Of a stretch of DNA of 64,000 nucleotides, positions 449-5,354 are shown in pieces. Origin of the DNA: a virus. Within the stretch, counting starts at the first letter, position 1; every line of letters begins with the position of its first letter. The notes under the pieces were generated by a model. It was not told the DNA's origin. It did not search any database and worked only from the letters and a program-made list of their open reading frames with translations. A program made the translations under genes and the position numbers. The stretch lies in the IMG/VR virus record IMGVR_UViG_3300009499_000295, positions 1 through 64,000 of that record, one strand, 5' to 3'.

Positions 449-450
449 AC

Positions 451-457
451 TTATATA
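451..457 (+). promoter_or_regulatory. Possible archaeal TATA element
   Basis: TTATATA just after the stop of a gene, at the start of a gene-poor stretch. It resembles the archaeal TATA box (TTTAWATA-like). It could drive an RNA across the following stretch, including the tRNA-like structure. Weak, because AT-rich hexamers are common here and no transcription data are available. Confidence 0.25.
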
Positions 458-942
458 GGCTTATTACCCATAACTAATAATATACATGGAGTACTGTAGG
501 TAACGGTTACTTCTATTGACATACTATAATAAGCCCGTTTCCGTCCGTTTGTCTCCTGTATAATCAAAGTCACAATGGGATCATCCTGTGCTTGCAGGAG
601 TGGCGACATAACAAGTGTTCCCTTGAGCAAGGTAAATGTCGCAATGCTGGTGACGAAGCTCAGGTTGCTAGTATCCCCATATGACATCATAGTCACCGGA
701 GAGGTACTGTAGAGATTGGTTACTTCACCCTTCAGAGGTAGTGGTCCAGGTTCGAGCCCTGGTGAGTCCCTCGGGACTTGTAGCATAACTGGTAGTGCAC
801 TTCTGTCACCGTCCTCGCCCGTTCGTCCTCTCCACTGACATTCTTTTAATTGGAAGGATTGAGATGGATGAAAGAAGCACGGCAGTAATATCTGCAATTC
901 TATTGATAATAGGCTTAATTTGTCTAGCAGTAAGTTATACAA
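451..942 (-). CDS. Doubtful minus-strand ORF in the gene-poor stretch
   Basis: The only minus-strand frame in the window that does not simply lie beneath a plus-strand gene. The downstream part (complement of about 451-735) has protein-like composition, rich in Thr, Ser and Val, with two related segments, EVTNLYSTSP and EVTVTYSTP, about 75 residues apart. This could be a domain edge repeated in a structural protein. The N-terminal part runs through the tRNA-like structure and into a plus-strand membrane-protein gene, so the annotated start is not credible. It may be the decayed 3' end of a virion or adhesin gene. Apart from the tRNA-like element I see nothing else in 449-863. Confidence 0.2.
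   Translation of the reverse strand: MYNLLLDKLSLLSIELQILLPCFFHPSQSFQLKECQWRGRTGEDGDRSALPVMLQVPRDSPGLEPGPLPLKGEVTNLYSTSPVTMMSYGDTSNLSFVTSIATFTLLKGTLVMSPLLQAQDDPIVTLIIQETNGRKRAYYSMSIEVTVTYSTPCILLVMGNKPI
734..804 (+). tRNA. Candidate circularly permuted tRNA (3' half upstream of 5' half)
   Basis: The T-arm is at 746-762: CCAGG, loop TTCGAGC, CCTGG, a perfect TTCRANY loop. The acceptor 3' strand TGAGTCC is at 763-769 with C at 770. After a two- to three-base spacer comes the acceptor 5' strand GGACTTG at 774-780, which pairs along all seven positions (two wobbles). TA fills positions 8-9, and a D-arm follows: GCAT, loop AACTGGTA, GTGC at 783-798. CTTCT (800-804) pairs with AGAGG (734-738) as an anticodon stem closing across the permutation. 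Leader GGAGAGG (698-704) and trailer CCTCTCC (827-833) are complementary. Problems: the variable region would be seven bases, no join gives a purine at position 37, and I cannot assign an anticodon (CAC or CAT are possible). No clear bulge-helix-bulge was found by eye. Confidence 0.42.
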
Positions 943-1314: not shown

Positions 1315-1752
1315 ATGGGTGGTAAGGTCCGAACGTTTGAAGTAGAGGAATTAAAAGAACTTCTTTCTAAGAGCAACTTCAAGTACAGTGAGATACATGG
1401 AAAGTCAATCAAAGAAAGATTAGAACTTCTGTTAGGATTTCTAAATAACCGATTTGGGGTAAAGTTTCTCCTAGTAGGAACAACTGATTGTGGTGCATCT
1501 TCTTCTTTTAGAGGATCCCCAGCAGGAAACCCTCCAACTCTACCTAAGACAATTACCTTTAACTTCAGGGGAAAGTACTCACATACCGTTAAACATGCTG
1601 TCTATGTCTTCTGTCATGAGTATGGACACTTGTTATTAAATGAACTGGGATGGAAGGACTATGAGGAGTATTGTAATCAGTTTGCTGATATGATACTACT
1701 AGAGTTAGGAACACTTGCCCCAGATTTTCTTTATGGTGATATAGATGCCTAA
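1315..1752 (+). CDS. HEXXH metallopeptidase-like protein (ImmA/IrrE-like)
   Basis: A 145-residue protein with HEYGH at residues 101-105, the zinc ligand and general-base motif of gluzincin-type metallopeptidases. It is followed by a downstream acidic stretch and NQFADMIL, as in the ImmA/IrrE family where a Glu about a dozen residues on provides the third ligand. ImmA/IrrE enzymes cleave transcriptional repressors in mobile elements and stress responses; whether this protein has such a substrate is unknown. It overlaps the following TROVE gene by eight bases, so the two are translationally coupled. Confidence 0.65.
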   Translation: MGGKVRTFEVEELKELLSKSNFKYSEIHGKSIKERLELLLGFLNNRFGVKFLLVGTTDCGASSSFRGSPAGNPPTLPKTITFNFRGKYSHTVKHAVYVFCHEYGHLLLNELGWKDYEEYCNQFADMILLELGTLAPDFLYGDIDA

Positions 1753-2197
1753 AACGTTGAAAGAGACAATAAGAGTCTCTCTGGATAAGGATAAGTCTAA
1801 GACAGAGAACACTGAAGGCGGAGAAGCCTTTAGGATGTCTAAGAAGACAGAACTATACGAAAGAGTAATGACTTCCTTAATGGAAGGAAAGTTCTACGAT
1901 CCTGATAGTCAGGGTACAAGACAGGCAATAGCTGATCTAATTGAACAGATGGAGAAGATCGATCCAGAGTTTCCACTTAAGTTAGCCTCTTATGCTAGGA
2001 ATGAGATGCACCTACGAAGTGTACCCATATTCATAGCTGTAGAAGCTGCTAAGCATGAGAATATGAAGAAGCTTCTACCAAAGTGGCTTCCAAGTATAAT
2101 CCAAAGAGCAGATGAATTAACAGAGATTATAGCCCATTACATAGAAGAGAACGGTCCGATAGGAGATAGTAAGACAGGAGTAACTAAAGATGCATGA
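1745..2197 (+). CDS. TROVE domain protein, N-terminal part (Ro60-like)
   Basis: A 150-residue protein corresponding to the N-terminal HEAT-like helices of the TROVE domain of Ro60/Rsr. The middle (PEFPLKLASYARNEMHLRSVP and following) is typical of the family. In standard Ro60 proteins the chain continues directly into the sequence now encoded by the gene after next. Here it stops after a Gly/Asp-rich linker, and an unrelated small gene overlaps its end. Ro60 proteins form a ring that binds misfolded RNAs and Y RNAs and help RNA quality control. The two pieces could reassemble as a split protein. I infer a recent or tolerated gene insertion. Confidence 0.7.
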   Translation: MPKTLKETIRVSLDKDKSKTENTEGGEAFRMSKKTELYERVMTSLMEGKFYDPDSQGTRQAIADLIEQMEKIDPEFPLKLASYARNEMHLRSVPIFIAVEAAKHENMKKLLPKWLPSIIQRADELTEIIAHYIEENGPIGDSKTGVTKDA

Positions 2198-2501
2198 GAA
2201 TAAACACTGTGAAATTGATAAGGCCATATTCGGCCAGGAATATCCTGCAATTCATGAATGGATAGATGAGTTCTTCCCAAACTACCAAGATTGGGAACAT
2301 TGGAAAGAAAGACATCACCTTACTGCTATCCGAGAGAAATATAAAGAGGGCTCTAATGAGTATCTTTCTGCACTCTTGCATATTATCTGTGACTGGATTA
2401 GTCATGTAAAAGCATTTGAACTTCCTACAGATAGAAAGGAAACTCTAGAAATGTTAACCAACTATTGTCTAATTTCAGGGGATGATAAAAATGTTAAGTA
2501 A
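2190..2501 (+). CDS. Small acidic protein inserted between the two TROVE genes
   Basis: A 103-residue acidic and His/Trp-rich protein (HEWIDEFF, HWKERHHL, HIICDWISH) with no domain I can name. It overlaps the upstream TROVE gene by eight bases and the downstream one by eleven, so it is fully integrated into the reading train rather than sitting as loose cargo. It has no endonuclease motif that would explain its insertion by homing. Possible Zn-binding role from the His clusters; unproven. Confidence 0.6.
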   Translation: MHENKHCEIDKAIFGQEYPAIHEWIDEFFPNYQDWEHWKERHHLTAIREKYKEGSNEYLSALLHIICDWISHVKAFELPTDRKETLEMLTNYCLISGDDKNVK

Positions 2502-3636
2502 CCCATTAAAGAAAGGCCTTCAAGAAGCTATTCATAAATTCAGAGAGTACCACTTTGCTAAGTACAAGGGAAGAGGTAAAGCTGTTACAATGAAGGATGT
2601 CCTGAGGTTAGTTCACCCTAAACCTAGAAATGAAGAAGAGAGTGCACTATTCAAGAAGATCATAGAGGGTACACTTACACCTCCAAAGACATGGGAGGTA
2701 TTCATAAGTACCAACGGTGCTAGTAAGAAGAACTGGGAGATCATCATGTCCAAGATGGGTATCATGGCTCAACTTAGGAATCTTAGAAACTTTGCTAAGT
2801 ATGGCTGTAACGTAGACTCAGTAATAAGGAACCTAAACAATGAAACTACAATCCTTAAGAGTAAACAGTTTCCATTCAGATTCTTCTCAGCATATAAGGC
2901 TCTAGCCCAAGGTATGCGTGAGATTCCAGCTAAGTATCATCCTTTGACTCAACATCTGATGGATGCTGTACAAGATGCTATGGCAATCTCAGTAAAGAAC
3001 TTACCAGTCATTCCAGGAATAACATTCATGACTGCTGATAACTCGTCCTCAATGGGTGGTCTTTTATCTGAAAGAGGTTCAGTTTCCTATAGTGATGTAG
3101 CTAATCTTCTACAGGCCATAGCTTACCGGATCTCAGATCAGGCTGTAACATCTGTCTTCGGACAAGAGTTTGCTATTGTTCCTGTAAGTCAGAGATCAAC
3201 TATCATAGATAACATGTTAAAGTTCAAGAACACAGATGTAGGACACTCAACAAATGCTTACCTAGCCTTTGAGTGGCTACTAAATAACAAAATCAAGGTT
3301 GATAGGATCCTTCTATTCTCAGACATGCAATGCTATCGTGACTCAGGATATTCTACAGACACTGTGGCTTCTCTTCTTAGAGAGTACAGAGCCAGTATTA
3401 GTCCTGGATGTAGGTTCTATTCCTTCGATCTAACAGGGTATGGAACACTAAAGACACCAGAGAAAGAGACCTACCTGGTAGCAGGATGGTCAGAGAAGGT
3501 TCTTAACTTCATAGAACTGAATGAGACCAAAGGAGTCTCAGCAGTAAAAAAGGTGGAGGCGTATGAGCCCTTCAAAAAGAAAACACAAAGAAAGAAGACC
3601 ACTTCCAAATCCAAAACTACCCAGAAAGTTAGGTAA
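2491..3636 (+). CDS. TROVE C-terminal part plus vWA domain (Ro60-like)
   Basis: A 381-residue protein that begins inside the TROVE domain (KKGLQEAIHKFREYHFAKYK, then DVLRLVHPKP, a Ro60 hallmark). It continues to a von Willebrand A domain with the MIDAS motif DNSSS near residues 183-187, a conserved Thr further on and LLFSD for the last metal ligand. With the upstream partial TROVE gene it makes up a complete Ro60. The tail is Lys/Thr-rich. Start ATG at 2491 is preferred over 2482 because AGGGGA lies eight bases ahead. Ro60 proteins bind the ends of damaged or misfolded RNA; the neighbouring RNA ligase fits an RNA-repair role. Confidence 0.8.
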   Translation: MLSNPLKKGLQEAIHKFREYHFAKYKGRGKAVTMKDVLRLVHPKPRNEEESALFKKIIEGTLTPPKTWEVFISTNGASKKNWEIIMSKMGIMAQLRNLRNFAKYGCNVDSVIRNLNNETTILKSKQFPFRFFSAYKALAQGMREIPAKYHPLTQHLMDAVQDAMAISVKNLPVIPGITFMTADNSSSMGGLLSERGSVSYSDVANLLQAIAYRISDQAVTSVFGQEFAIVPVSQRSTIIDNMLKFKNTDVGHSTNAYLAFEWLLNNKIKVDRILLFSDMQCYRDSGYSTDTVASLLREYRASISPGCRFYSFDLTGYGTLKTPEKETYLVAGWSEKVLNFIELNETKGVSAVKKVEAYEPFKKKTQRKKTTSKSKTTQKVR

Positions 3637-4141
3637 ACTCCTAGTATATGGAGTAACTGAGGATAACATCCTAGCCTTTCAACTAGGAGCACACGGTATC
3701 TACCTGGTTAGAACTGTCCAGATAGAGACCTCTGAAGAGAAGAGACTAAACCCAATGATGGCTGTTATTCGTTACAACGCAGACAAGGATATCTACTGTT
3801 TCTTAAAGAACACAGATATTTTGTCCTTTAGGATATTCAAACATGCCATCTTCAAGACTAAAGCAAGAACCAAGGCATTCTTCTACTCAGTAGCTAACAA
3901 TATTCTAGGTCTAGCCAAGGGTAAAGTTCTTAGGATCAAGTCTAAACATCAGAAACTTAGAAAGGAACTCTATGACATTGCAGTCAAGGTAAACGAAGAA
4001 GGAAAATTCGAATGTAGCTTTGACTATGATAAGTATGATCTACTCCTTGAGTTGAAGAAATTCAACACTAAAGACAAGACTTGGTTCGTGGTAACAACAA
4101 TAGGATTGGACGATATTGTCTCAACAGGTAAATCTTCATGA
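3563..4141 (+). CDS. Uncharacterised protein between TROVE/vWA and RNA ligase
   Basis: A 192-residue protein with a strongly basic, Pro-rich N-terminus (first 25 residues) followed by an alpha/beta body without a family I recognise. GGAGG sits five bases before the ATG. It overlaps the vWA gene by 74 bases in another frame, so the ends of both are dual-coding. Position between a Ro60-like protein and an RNA ligase suggests a part in RNA binding or repair; the basic N-terminus fits but does not prove this. Confidence 0.65.
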   Translation: MSPSKRKHKERRPLPNPKLPRKLGKLLVYGVTEDNILAFQLGAHGIYLVRTVQIETSEEKRLNPMMAVIRYNADKDIYCFLKNTDILSFRIFKHAIFKTKARTKAFFYSVANNILGLAKGKVLRIKSKHQKLRKELYDIAVKVNEEGKFECSFDYDKYDLLLELKKFNTKDKTWFVVTTIGLDDIVSTGKSS

Positions 4142-5354
4142 GATACCTCCGAGACGAAGACTGGTCGAAATACATCAAAAACTAGTAAGAGTTCGGTCCC
4201 TTCGGACACTTCGTTCTAGGGTATGTGAGTACCTTCAGTGCGGAGGATCAGAAGTTAAGGAGTTTCACTACAAGATAAATGGTCATGATTGGAAAGGGAT
4301 CATCTATCTTAAGAGGAACAACCTAATGGGATCAATTTTCTCTCTTTTTGATAACAAAGTCTTCATCATCAGAGGTTTTCCTAAGATAAGATACACTTCT
4401 AACTCCCGAGTGAGGGATAGGGTCTGTGTCGCAGAGGAGAAAGTAGATGGTACCAACATTGGTATCTGGGCTTTCCCCGATGGTTCTATTATGGGAAAAA
4501 CTAGGATGGTTGAGAGATGGGACAAAGGTTCTAAGAGGGCAAAGGAGTATGGTAGTTGGAAGAGGAAGTTTGCACATGTTCCTTGTCATAGTAGAATCTA
4601 TAAACTAGCCAGAGAGGGGTTCCTAGTATACGTGGAACTATACGGTTATCATAACTCTGGAGAGTTTGTTAAATACACTACTCCAATGGCTTACAAGGTT
4701 ATAGGGATAGTAAACTTAGAAACGTATCACTTCTTACCTAGGCCAAGAGTAGAACAGTTATGTTCAGCATACAACCTTGAAGTTGTTCCAGTCTACTACA
4801 AAGGTACACTTACAGCTAAAGAGGTACGAAAGATGGAAGTAGACCTGGAACAGGAAATGGCACTAGATGGAATGGAAGGTCTGGTTGCTAAGTACTGGGA
4901 TGAGAAAGACAAAGATTCCTACTTCTGTAAGATTAAGTGTGACAGGATTAAAGAGGTCTGTTGGAAGATTAGCCGTTCTCTTATACCAGCTGCTATGATA
5001 CGGAAGTGTATTAAGAAAGCACTGGATGAAAACTTAGGAGAAACACGAATAGAGATTATCTATCCTGTAGTCGTAGAGGAACTAACAGAAGACTTTGATG
5101 AGGCTATCCTAGAGACTTCACAGGGAAAGATTAAGGGTCTAATCCGTTACATGACAACTCCCTCAGATGTGGTTCTTAAGGCTAGGGTCGTAGAGGTAAT
5201 GAAGAAGATGAAAGCCCTAGACGTAGATATAGAGAATCCTAAGAAGAAAGGAGAGGTTCTCTCAGGACTACATGATAAACTAGGGGATATTGGTGGAGGA
5301 ACATTGTTCAAACTCTACAACGAAGTCCTATTGGAGATGAAAGGAAAATGGTAG
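4116..5354 (+). CDS. ATP-dependent RNA ligase family protein
   Basis: About 412 residues with the covalent nucleotidyltransferase motifs in order: motif I KVDGTN (Lys near 109, the adenylylated residue), motif III VELYGY (Glu near 174), motif IV EGLVAK (near 254-259) and motif V KIK (near 272-274), followed by a helical C-terminal domain. These define RNA/DNA ligases; the layout is closer to RNA ligases. The reaction would join 3'-OH and 5'-phosphate RNA ends via an AMP intermediate. The start is uncertain: the TTG used here overlaps the previous gene, and an ATG at 4139 in another frame opens only 15 codons. The N-terminal 70 residues could contain a frameshift. Confidence 0.75.
   Translation: MSQQVNLHEIPPRRRLVEIHQKLVRVRSLRTLRSRVCEYLQCGGSEVKEFHYKINGHDWKGIIYLKRNNLMGSIFSLFDNKVFIIRGFPKIRYTSNSRVRDRVCVAEEKVDGTNIGIWAFPDGSIMGKTRMVERWDKGSKRAKEYGSWKRKFAHVPCHSRIYKLAREGFLVYVELYGYHNSGEFVKYTTPMAYKVIGIVNLETYHFLPRPRVEQLCSAYNLEVVPVYYKGTLTAKEVRKMEVDLEQEMALDGMEGLVAKYWDEKDKDSYFCKIKCDRIKEVCWKISRSLIPAAMIRKCIKKALDENLGETRIEIIYPVVVEELTEDFDEAILETSQGKIKGLIRYMTTPSDVVLKARVVEVMKKMKALDVDIENPKKKGEVLSGLHDKLGDIGGGTLFKLYNEVLLEMKGKW

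What the first reader, a model, noticed from the sequence alone, without database searches (positions are those of the whole stretch)
734..804. Candidate circularly permuted tRNA
A perfect T-arm and acceptor 3' strand lie upstream of a complementary acceptor 5' strand and D-arm, with a two- to three-base spacer; the anticodon stem closes across the permutation and leader and trailer carry a seven-base complementary pair. Permuted tRNAs are established in red algae, some green algae and a few archaea; one in a mobile element would be new to me. Irregularities: seven-base variable region, no purine at position 37, no clear splice motif.
Basis: partly seen in the sequence, partly recalled or inferred. 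Interest (0 to 1): 0.75.

Follow-up and report, generated by a model that had tools for sequence, protein, structure and literature searches.

The report
Y RNA mimicking a permuted tRNA
The apparent permuted tRNA is almost certainly a Y RNA, the small RNA partner of the ring protein Ro60, encoded just upstream of a Ro60 gene in a tailed virus that probably infects an archaeon; tRNA mimicry in rotated order is already known for bacterial Y RNAs, but relatives of this virus carry the same RNA in both the rotated and the ordinary tRNA order.

Summary
A T-arm (746-762), an acceptor hairpin (763-780, 2-nt spacer), a D-arm (783-798), an anticodon-like stem (733-738/800-805) and a 7-bp outer stem (698-704/827-833) are all present. 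No random sequence scored as high in 673 million strand-bases. The interpretation changes. The RNA is a YrlA-type Y RNA, a known class whose tRNA mimic is circularly permuted, not a tRNA gene. A Ro60 (TROVE plus vWA) gene starts about 900 bp downstream, split into two ORFs by an inserted ORF; an RNA ligase gene follows. A covariance model built from 16 viral Y RNAs without this one finds 704-830 at 51 bits (E 1.6e-8), the best hit in the 133-kb genome. Its conserved motif, stem-UUACUUC, also marks a second, small Y RNA at 484-565 lacking the tRNA module. There is no bulge-helix-bulge splice site. Several genes and nearest relatives suggest an archaeal host. The unexpected result lies in relatives: eight Y RNAs at seven viral Ro60 loci, including the "tRNA-Asp with intron" of halovirus HGTV-1, carry the same modules in ordinary tRNA order, and the order appears to have switched at least three times on the Ro60 tree. 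Everything is computed; expression and binding are untested.

The parts
450..457 (+). TATA-like box about 27-30 nt upstream of the inferred 5' end of the small Y RNA (archaeal-type promoter candidate)
   Evidence: Sequence; inference only
484..565 (+). RNA1: small Y RNA without a tRNA module; outer stem GGAG/CUCC, inner stem AACGG/CCGUU, motif UUACUUC 507-513
   Evidence: Second-best hit of model R1 in the genome (491-528, 17.5 bits, E 0.083). Shares GUACUGUAG...GGUUACUUC with RNA3. Same form visible in L035, L037, L039 and L045
698..834 (+). RNA3: YrlA-type Y RNA (the finding), containing the permuted tRNA-like module
   Evidence: Model R1, built without it: 704-830, 51.4 bits, E 1.6e-8; Rfam YrlA 740-801 in register, sub-threshold
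698..704 (+). 5' strand of outer stem GGAGAGG (pairs with 827-833)
   Evidence: Sequence; fold
720..726 (+). UUACUUC, the conserved 5' motif on the Ro60 side
   Evidence: Near-invariant in 16 viral homologues
733..738 (+). anticodon-stem-like helix CAGAGG, paired with CUUCUG 800-805
   Evidence: Sequence
746..762 (+). T-arm mimic
763..780 (+). acceptor-stem mimic as a capped hairpin, UGAGUCCC-UC-GGGACUUG
   Evidence: homologous helix covaries in relatives
783..798 (+). D-arm mimic
818..833 (+). 3' strand of the Ro60-side stem (CCCGUUCGUC) and outer stem CCUCUCC
   Evidence: Sequence; equivalent complementary 3' strand in homologues
1745..2197 (+). Ro60 N-terminal half (150 aa, TROVE)
   Evidence: Pfam TROVE 24.1 bits; PDB 9l5y/9kop
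2190..2501 (+). 103-aa ORF inserted between the Ro60 halves; sub-threshold DUF6915
2482..3636 (+). Ro60 C-terminal half (384 aa, TROVE plus vWA; DxSxS, T and D of a MIDAS present)
   Evidence: Pfam TROVE 68.1 and vWA_Ro60 31.1 bits; PDB Ro60 chains; alignment
4116..5354 (+). RNA ligase (ATP-dependent family)
   Evidence: Pfam RNA_ligase 50.7 bits; weak TIGR01209

Best explanation
The feature is a virus-encoded Y RNA of the YrlA type, about 137 nt (698-834). Shown computationally: it has a Ro60-side stem made of its 5' and 3' ends with the family motif UUACUUC, and at the other end a tRNA-like module (T-arm, capped acceptor, D-arm) in circularly permuted order. It is encoded with a second small Y RNA upstream of a split Ro60 gene and an RNA ligase gene. 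Inferred: the two Ro60 chains assemble into the usual ring, which binds the stem side. The tRNA-like end recruits tRNA-recognising proteins: tRNA-modifying enzymes, and a 3'-5' exonuclease that in bacteria is PNPase and in an archaeal host would be the exosome or another nuclease. The particle would then direct RNA decay or repair during infection.
For: Model built from 16 other viral Y RNAs, window excluded: 51.4 bits, E 1.6e-8, best in 133 kb. Rfam YrlA in exact register. Ro60 immediately downstream. The same permuted module plus UUACUUC-type motif sits next to Ro60 in at least 13 other viral loci. Helices covary there: 97.8% of cells paired, 67 double-sided changes. The Ro60-side stem, which was not used for selection, is complementary far above shuffles (5.45 vs 3.65 +/- 0.22, 0 of 2000). 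Published YrlA is a circularly permuted tRNA mimic (PMC11472068; PMC8394870).
Against: The Rfam score is below gathering (21 vs 69). The Y RNA fold is not the minimum-energy fold (-41.3 vs -45.9 kcal/mol) and z is -0.11. The inner Ro60-side stem of this copy holds a U-U mismatch. T-arm, acceptor and D-arm pairing was part of the selection descriptor, so the covariation count is partly circular. Ro60 is split into two ORFs and might be non-functional. There is no expression or binding evidence. The partner protein is unknown, and PNPase is generally absent from archaea (own knowledge).
Confidence: 0.93

Rival explanations
1. A true circularly permuted tRNA gene: the precursor is cut at the leader/trailer junction, circularised, and opened at the acceptor by RNase P and tRNase Z to give a functional tRNA.
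For: Gene order, closing anticodon-like stem and leader-trailer pairing. Rejoined sequences are called as tRNA by ARAGORN, mostly SeC/tca. Known permuted tRNAs have intervening sequences of 1-74 bp, so a 2-nt spacer alone does not exclude it (PMC3978253).
Against: No strict BHB motif, and fewer relaxed ones than in shuffles. Homologues cap the acceptor with stable tetraloops. Conserved non-tRNA UUACUUC stem and linked Ro60 gene. No stable anticodon among possible joins.
Confidence: 0.03
2. Remnant of two tandem tRNA genes (T-arm of one, D-arm of the next) that resembles YrlA by accident.
For: Rfam's YrlA model does fire on tandem tRNAs (13 of 14 control genomes give sub-threshold hits).
Against: No tRNA in the window. 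Acceptor strands are complementary over 8 pairs with a 2-nt loop. Conserved flanking motif and independent model hit.
Confidence: 0.01
3. Same RNA, other function: the tRNA mimic is mainly a decoy or competitive inhibitor of a host anticodon nuclease or other tRNA-targeting defence, rather than a nuclease tether.
For: Competitive inhibition of the anticodon nuclease was proposed for Salmonella YrlA (PMC7790460). An RNA ligase gene is close by; viral RNA repair counters RNA-cleaving defence (PMC7824862).
Against: No defence target identified. Salmonella YrlA is not cleaved by the induced nuclease (PMC7790460), which fits inhibition but does not show it.
Confidence: 0.25

Closest known systems
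YrlA Y RNA (Rfam RF02553; Salmonella YrlA, PDB 6CU1)
   Same: End-paired stem, T-arm, capped acceptor and D-arm in circularly permuted order; linked to a Ro60 gene; sits in an RNA-repair context
   Different: Conserved 5' motif is UUACUUC instead of the AUGCU of the Rfam consensus; scores below the Rfam gathering cut-off; encoded by a probable archaeal virus; Ro60 partner split into two ORFs
Y RNAs of phages (Xanthomonas phage Olaya, Caulobacter phage CcrColossus, Brevundimonas phage Kikimora and others found here)
   Same: Same type of motif, module order and position beside the TROVE gene
   Different: Intact Ro60; several tRNA-bearing copies where the window has one; bacterial hosts
Ro60-linked RNAs of halovirus HGTV-1 (the closest Ro60 among named phage records)
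   Same: AUACUUC/UUACUUC stems beside TROVE
   Different: The tRNA-bearing copy is in ordinary tRNA order and is annotated as tRNA-Asp with intron
Circularly permuted tRNA genes of red and green algae and Thermofilum
   Same: Order of the two tRNA halves
   Different: No BHB; capped acceptor; Ro60 stem in place of an anticodon loop

Membership tests
YrlA / bacterial-type Y RNA | tRNA-like module in order T-arm, acceptor, D-arm | tested here: met
YrlA / bacterial-type Y RNA | Stem formed by the RNA's 5' and 3' ends | tested here: met
   GGAGAGG/CCUCUCC 698-704/827-833; complementary stems in homologues
YrlA / bacterial-type Y RNA | Gene next to a Ro60 (TROVE) gene | tested here: met
YrlA / bacterial-type Y RNA | Score over Rfam RF02553 gathering threshold | tested here: not met
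   21.2 vs 69 bits. The phage copies tested here also fall below it, so this is a search cut-off, not a structural feature; a model of viral members is met
YrlA / bacterial-type Y RNA | Binds Ro60; tRNA-like end is modified by tRNA enzymes or tethers a nuclease | not testable with these tools
   No experiment available
Circularly permuted tRNA gene | Bulge-helix-bulge at the leader/trailer junction | tested here: not met
   0 strict BHB
Circularly permuted tRNA gene | Rejoined sequence scores as a tRNA with a defined anticodon | tested here: inconclusive
   ARAGORN accepts 159 joins but the anticodon depends on the join
Circularly permuted tRNA gene | Circular intermediate and CCA-ended product | not testable with these tools
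   Needs RNA
Ro60 protein | TROVE domain plus vWA domain with MIDAS residues | tested here: met
   but on two separate ORFs

The most novel reading that the evidence does not exclude
Viral Y RNAs occur as natural circular permutants of one another. The same Ro60 stem and tRNA-like modules are opened either at the Ro60 stem (the window's order) or at the acceptor (ordinary tRNA order, with the Ro60 stem closed by a loop in place of the anticodon arm), and evolution has switched between the two several times. The tRNA-order forms, such as HGTV-1 'tRNA-Asp with intron', could enter the normal tRNA end-processing pathway.
Probability: 0.75. Interest if true: 0.7.

Novelty: new member of a known kind. 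Interest (0 to 1): 0.48.

Why it matters
It removes a false lead (a permuted tRNA gene in a mobile element) and adds Ro60/Y RNA particles to a probable archaeal virus. It supplies a viral Y RNA signature (stem-UUACUUC) and a covariance model that finds members scoring below Rfam's YrlA cut-off. The two circular permutations among relatives bear on how Y RNAs arose from tRNAs and whether their ends matter; both questions can be tested with existing phages and with halovirus HGTV-1.

Tried and rejected
Permuted tRNA gene: no BHB, capped acceptor, Ro60 linkage. Tandem tRNA remnant: no tRNA in the window, and the model hit is independent. Rfam SNORD123 hit on the minus strand (649-697): a short low-score match, treated as chance. 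Direct scans for close relatives (Ro60 C half and YrlA DNA in viral contigs, terminase in viral contigs, Ro60 C half in genome contigs) returned nothing usable; a two-sequence profile in viral contigs then gave 21 loci. The same profile in genome contigs gave one bacterial contig. MFE folding alone does not recover the Y RNA fold. The 103-aa insert has no match in phages. Many weak YrlA hits beside tRNA clusters were discarded because control genomes also show them.

Full report
WHAT IS THERE. The described elements are all present at 698-834 on the + strand: outer stem GGAGAGG/CCUCUCC (698-704/827-833); UUACUUC (720-726); anticodon-like stem CAGAGG/CUUCUG (733-738/800-805); T-arm 746-762; acceptor hairpin 763-780 with a UC spacer; D-arm 783-798. 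A descriptor for "T-arm, 6-8 bp acceptor hairpin, D-arm" in this order hits once in the 133,079-base virus record (score 17.9). In 673 million strand-bases of Markov-shuffled sequence no hit reaches 17. ARAGORN finds no tRNA in the window.

WHAT IT IS. Rfam's YrlA model (RF02553) aligns in exact register to 740-801, at 21.2 bits, below its gathering score of 69. Downstream lies a Ro60 gene: TROVE N part at 1745-2197, TROVE C part plus Ro60 vWA at 2482-3636, both matching solved TROVE/Ro60 chains. An RNA ligase gene follows at 4116-5354. Y RNAs are the RNA partners of Ro60. The bacterial Y RNA YrlA is described as a circularly permuted tRNA mimic (PMC11472068, PDB 6CU1), a tRNA-like domain plus an end-paired stem that binds Ro60 (PMC8394870). 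From memory, Chen et al. 2014 reported likely Y RNAs in more than 250 bacterial and phage species; that paper was not held.

COMPARATIVE TEST. Ninety-four phage records encode a relative of the Ro60 C half, and a two-sequence profile gave 21 IMG/VR loci, including HGTV-1 itself. The same permuted module, preceded by a stem and a [UA]UACUUC-type motif, lies beside Ro60 in at least 13 of the viral loci examined. A covariance model from 16 of these RNAs, window excluded (R1), finds window 704-830 at 51.4 bits, E 1.6e-8, the best hit in the genome. Helices in the 16 training RNAs show 97.8% paired cells and 67 double-sided changes; because those helices were part of the descriptor, this count is partly circular. 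The stem in front of UUACUUC was not selected for; its complementarity to the 3' side exceeds all 2000 shuffles (5.45 vs 3.65 +/- 0.22). YrlA hits beside tRNA clusters must be treated with care, since 13 of 14 control genomes show sub-threshold ones.

A SECOND Y RNA. RNA1 at 484-565 shares GUACUGUAG...GGUUACUUC with RNA3 and is R1's second hit in the genome (17.5 bits, E 0.083). It lacks the tRNA module. The same small form is visible in L035, L037, L039, L045 and HGTV-1.

NOT A PERMUTED tRNA GENE. Known permuted tRNAs are joined at a BHB motif and opened at the acceptor (PMC3978253). No strict BHB exists here and relaxed ones are fewer than in shuffles. Rejoined sequences are called as tRNA by ARAGORN, but with an anticodon that depends on the join. 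Homologues cap the acceptor with UUCG, GAAA or GCAA. The 2-nt spacer itself is not an argument, because known permuted tRNAs go down to 1 bp.

HOST. The best named Ro60 match is halovirus HGTV-1. DNA polymerase B hits haloviruses first. RadA/Rad51-like, PAN/CDC48-like AAA and ERCC4 genes are present, and a ligase-like protein matches ANMV-1, a virus of an uncultured archaeon. An archaeal host is likely but not shown. TROVE proteins are known in Borgs (PMC9605863) and in haloarchaeal tRNA clusters (PMC6333295); I found no report of archaeal Y RNAs in the library.

SPLIT Ro60. Nearly all of the viral relatives compared have Ro60 in one ORF; L049 and L032 are interrupted elsewhere. Only the window has a 103-aa ORF, with overlapping starts and stops, between two well-conserved halves. 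Residues of the metal-ion site are kept. Whether the halves assemble is unknown.

TWO CIRCULAR PERMUTATIONS IN RELATIVES. In L039 (the Ro60 closest to the window, 43-46% identical), L040, L041, L042, L049, HGTV-1 and crAss-like phage cr106_1 the same pieces occur in tRNA order: acceptor 5' strand, D-arm, 3' strand of the Ro60 stem, closing loop, 5' strand with the UUACUUC motif, T-arm, acceptor 3' strand. Shuffled or other upstream DNA reproduces the acceptor plus D-arm match in 0-4% of trials per case. A model from six of them finds the HGTV-1 RNA, annotated "tRNA-Asp + intron", at 39.5 bits, E 1.7e-6, and the cr106_1 RNA at 27.8 bits. Rotating the sequences in silico raises their match to the permuted family in every case, most in cr106_1 (29.8 to 61.1 bits); control rotations that also bring the acceptor ends together raise it about as much. 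On a Ro60 tree the tRNA order needs at least three changes across well-supported branches, and the window sits in a supported group of 11 rows holding both orders. Caveats: labels rest on my descriptors, a locus may hold copies I missed, and one long-branch join is doubtful.

MECHANISM. Shown: anatomy, conservation and linkage. Inferred: Ro60 binds the stem; the tRNA-like end recruits tRNA-binding enzymes or a nuclease (PNPase in the bacterial particle; something else in an archaeon), directing RNA decay or repair in infection. A decoy role against anticodon nucleases is the main functional rival (suggested for YrlA in PMC7790460).

VERDICT. Observation confirmed; interpretation partly supported (right topology, wrong gene class). 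The window RNA is a new member of a known kind; the permutation switching among relatives is the novel part.

Noticed in passing
L007 (HGTV-1, KC292026.1) 1623-1753: The annotated 'tRNA-Asp (gtc) + Intron' looks like a tRNA-order Y RNA: GAAGCG-UUACUUC pairs with CGCUUC, and a GUGG/CCAC stem is closed by GUUUU.
   Followed up: partly
L039 3949-4073 and 4273-4402; L040 3555-3679; L041 4381-4505; L042 4373-4498; L049 3886-4043; L009 5207-5349: Y RNAs with the UACUUC motif in ordinary tRNA order beside Ro60 genes: natural circular permutants of the window's RNA.
   Followed up: yes
window 569-685: Between the two Y RNAs lies a strongly predicted four-way-junction structure (-44.3 kcal/mol, z -2.95) with no Rfam family and no match in the related loci.
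   Followed up: partly
window 1745-3636: Ro60 is split into two ORFs by a 103-aa ORF with only a sub-threshold DUF6915 match; other viral relatives are mostly intact.
   Followed up: partly
L035 6060-7490: A cluster of about eight Y RNA copies follows one viral Ro60 gene, mixing copies with and without the tRNA module, many closed by a clear outer stem such as GAGCAG/CUGCUC.
   Followed up: partly
L016 3441-3570, L053 4478-4605, L043 6808-6935, L018 3407-3534: The stretch before the T-arm often looks like a tRNA anticodon loop and 3' stem (CUGUUAAUC, CUUUUAAUG, CUUGUAAUC, CUGCUAAUC), as if these Y RNAs derive from particular tRNAs; ARAGORN calls one as tRNA-Asn.
   Followed up: no
Rfam RF02553: All phage YrlA copies tested here score below the Rfam gathering cut-off, so standard annotation misses viral Y RNAs.
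   Followed up: yes
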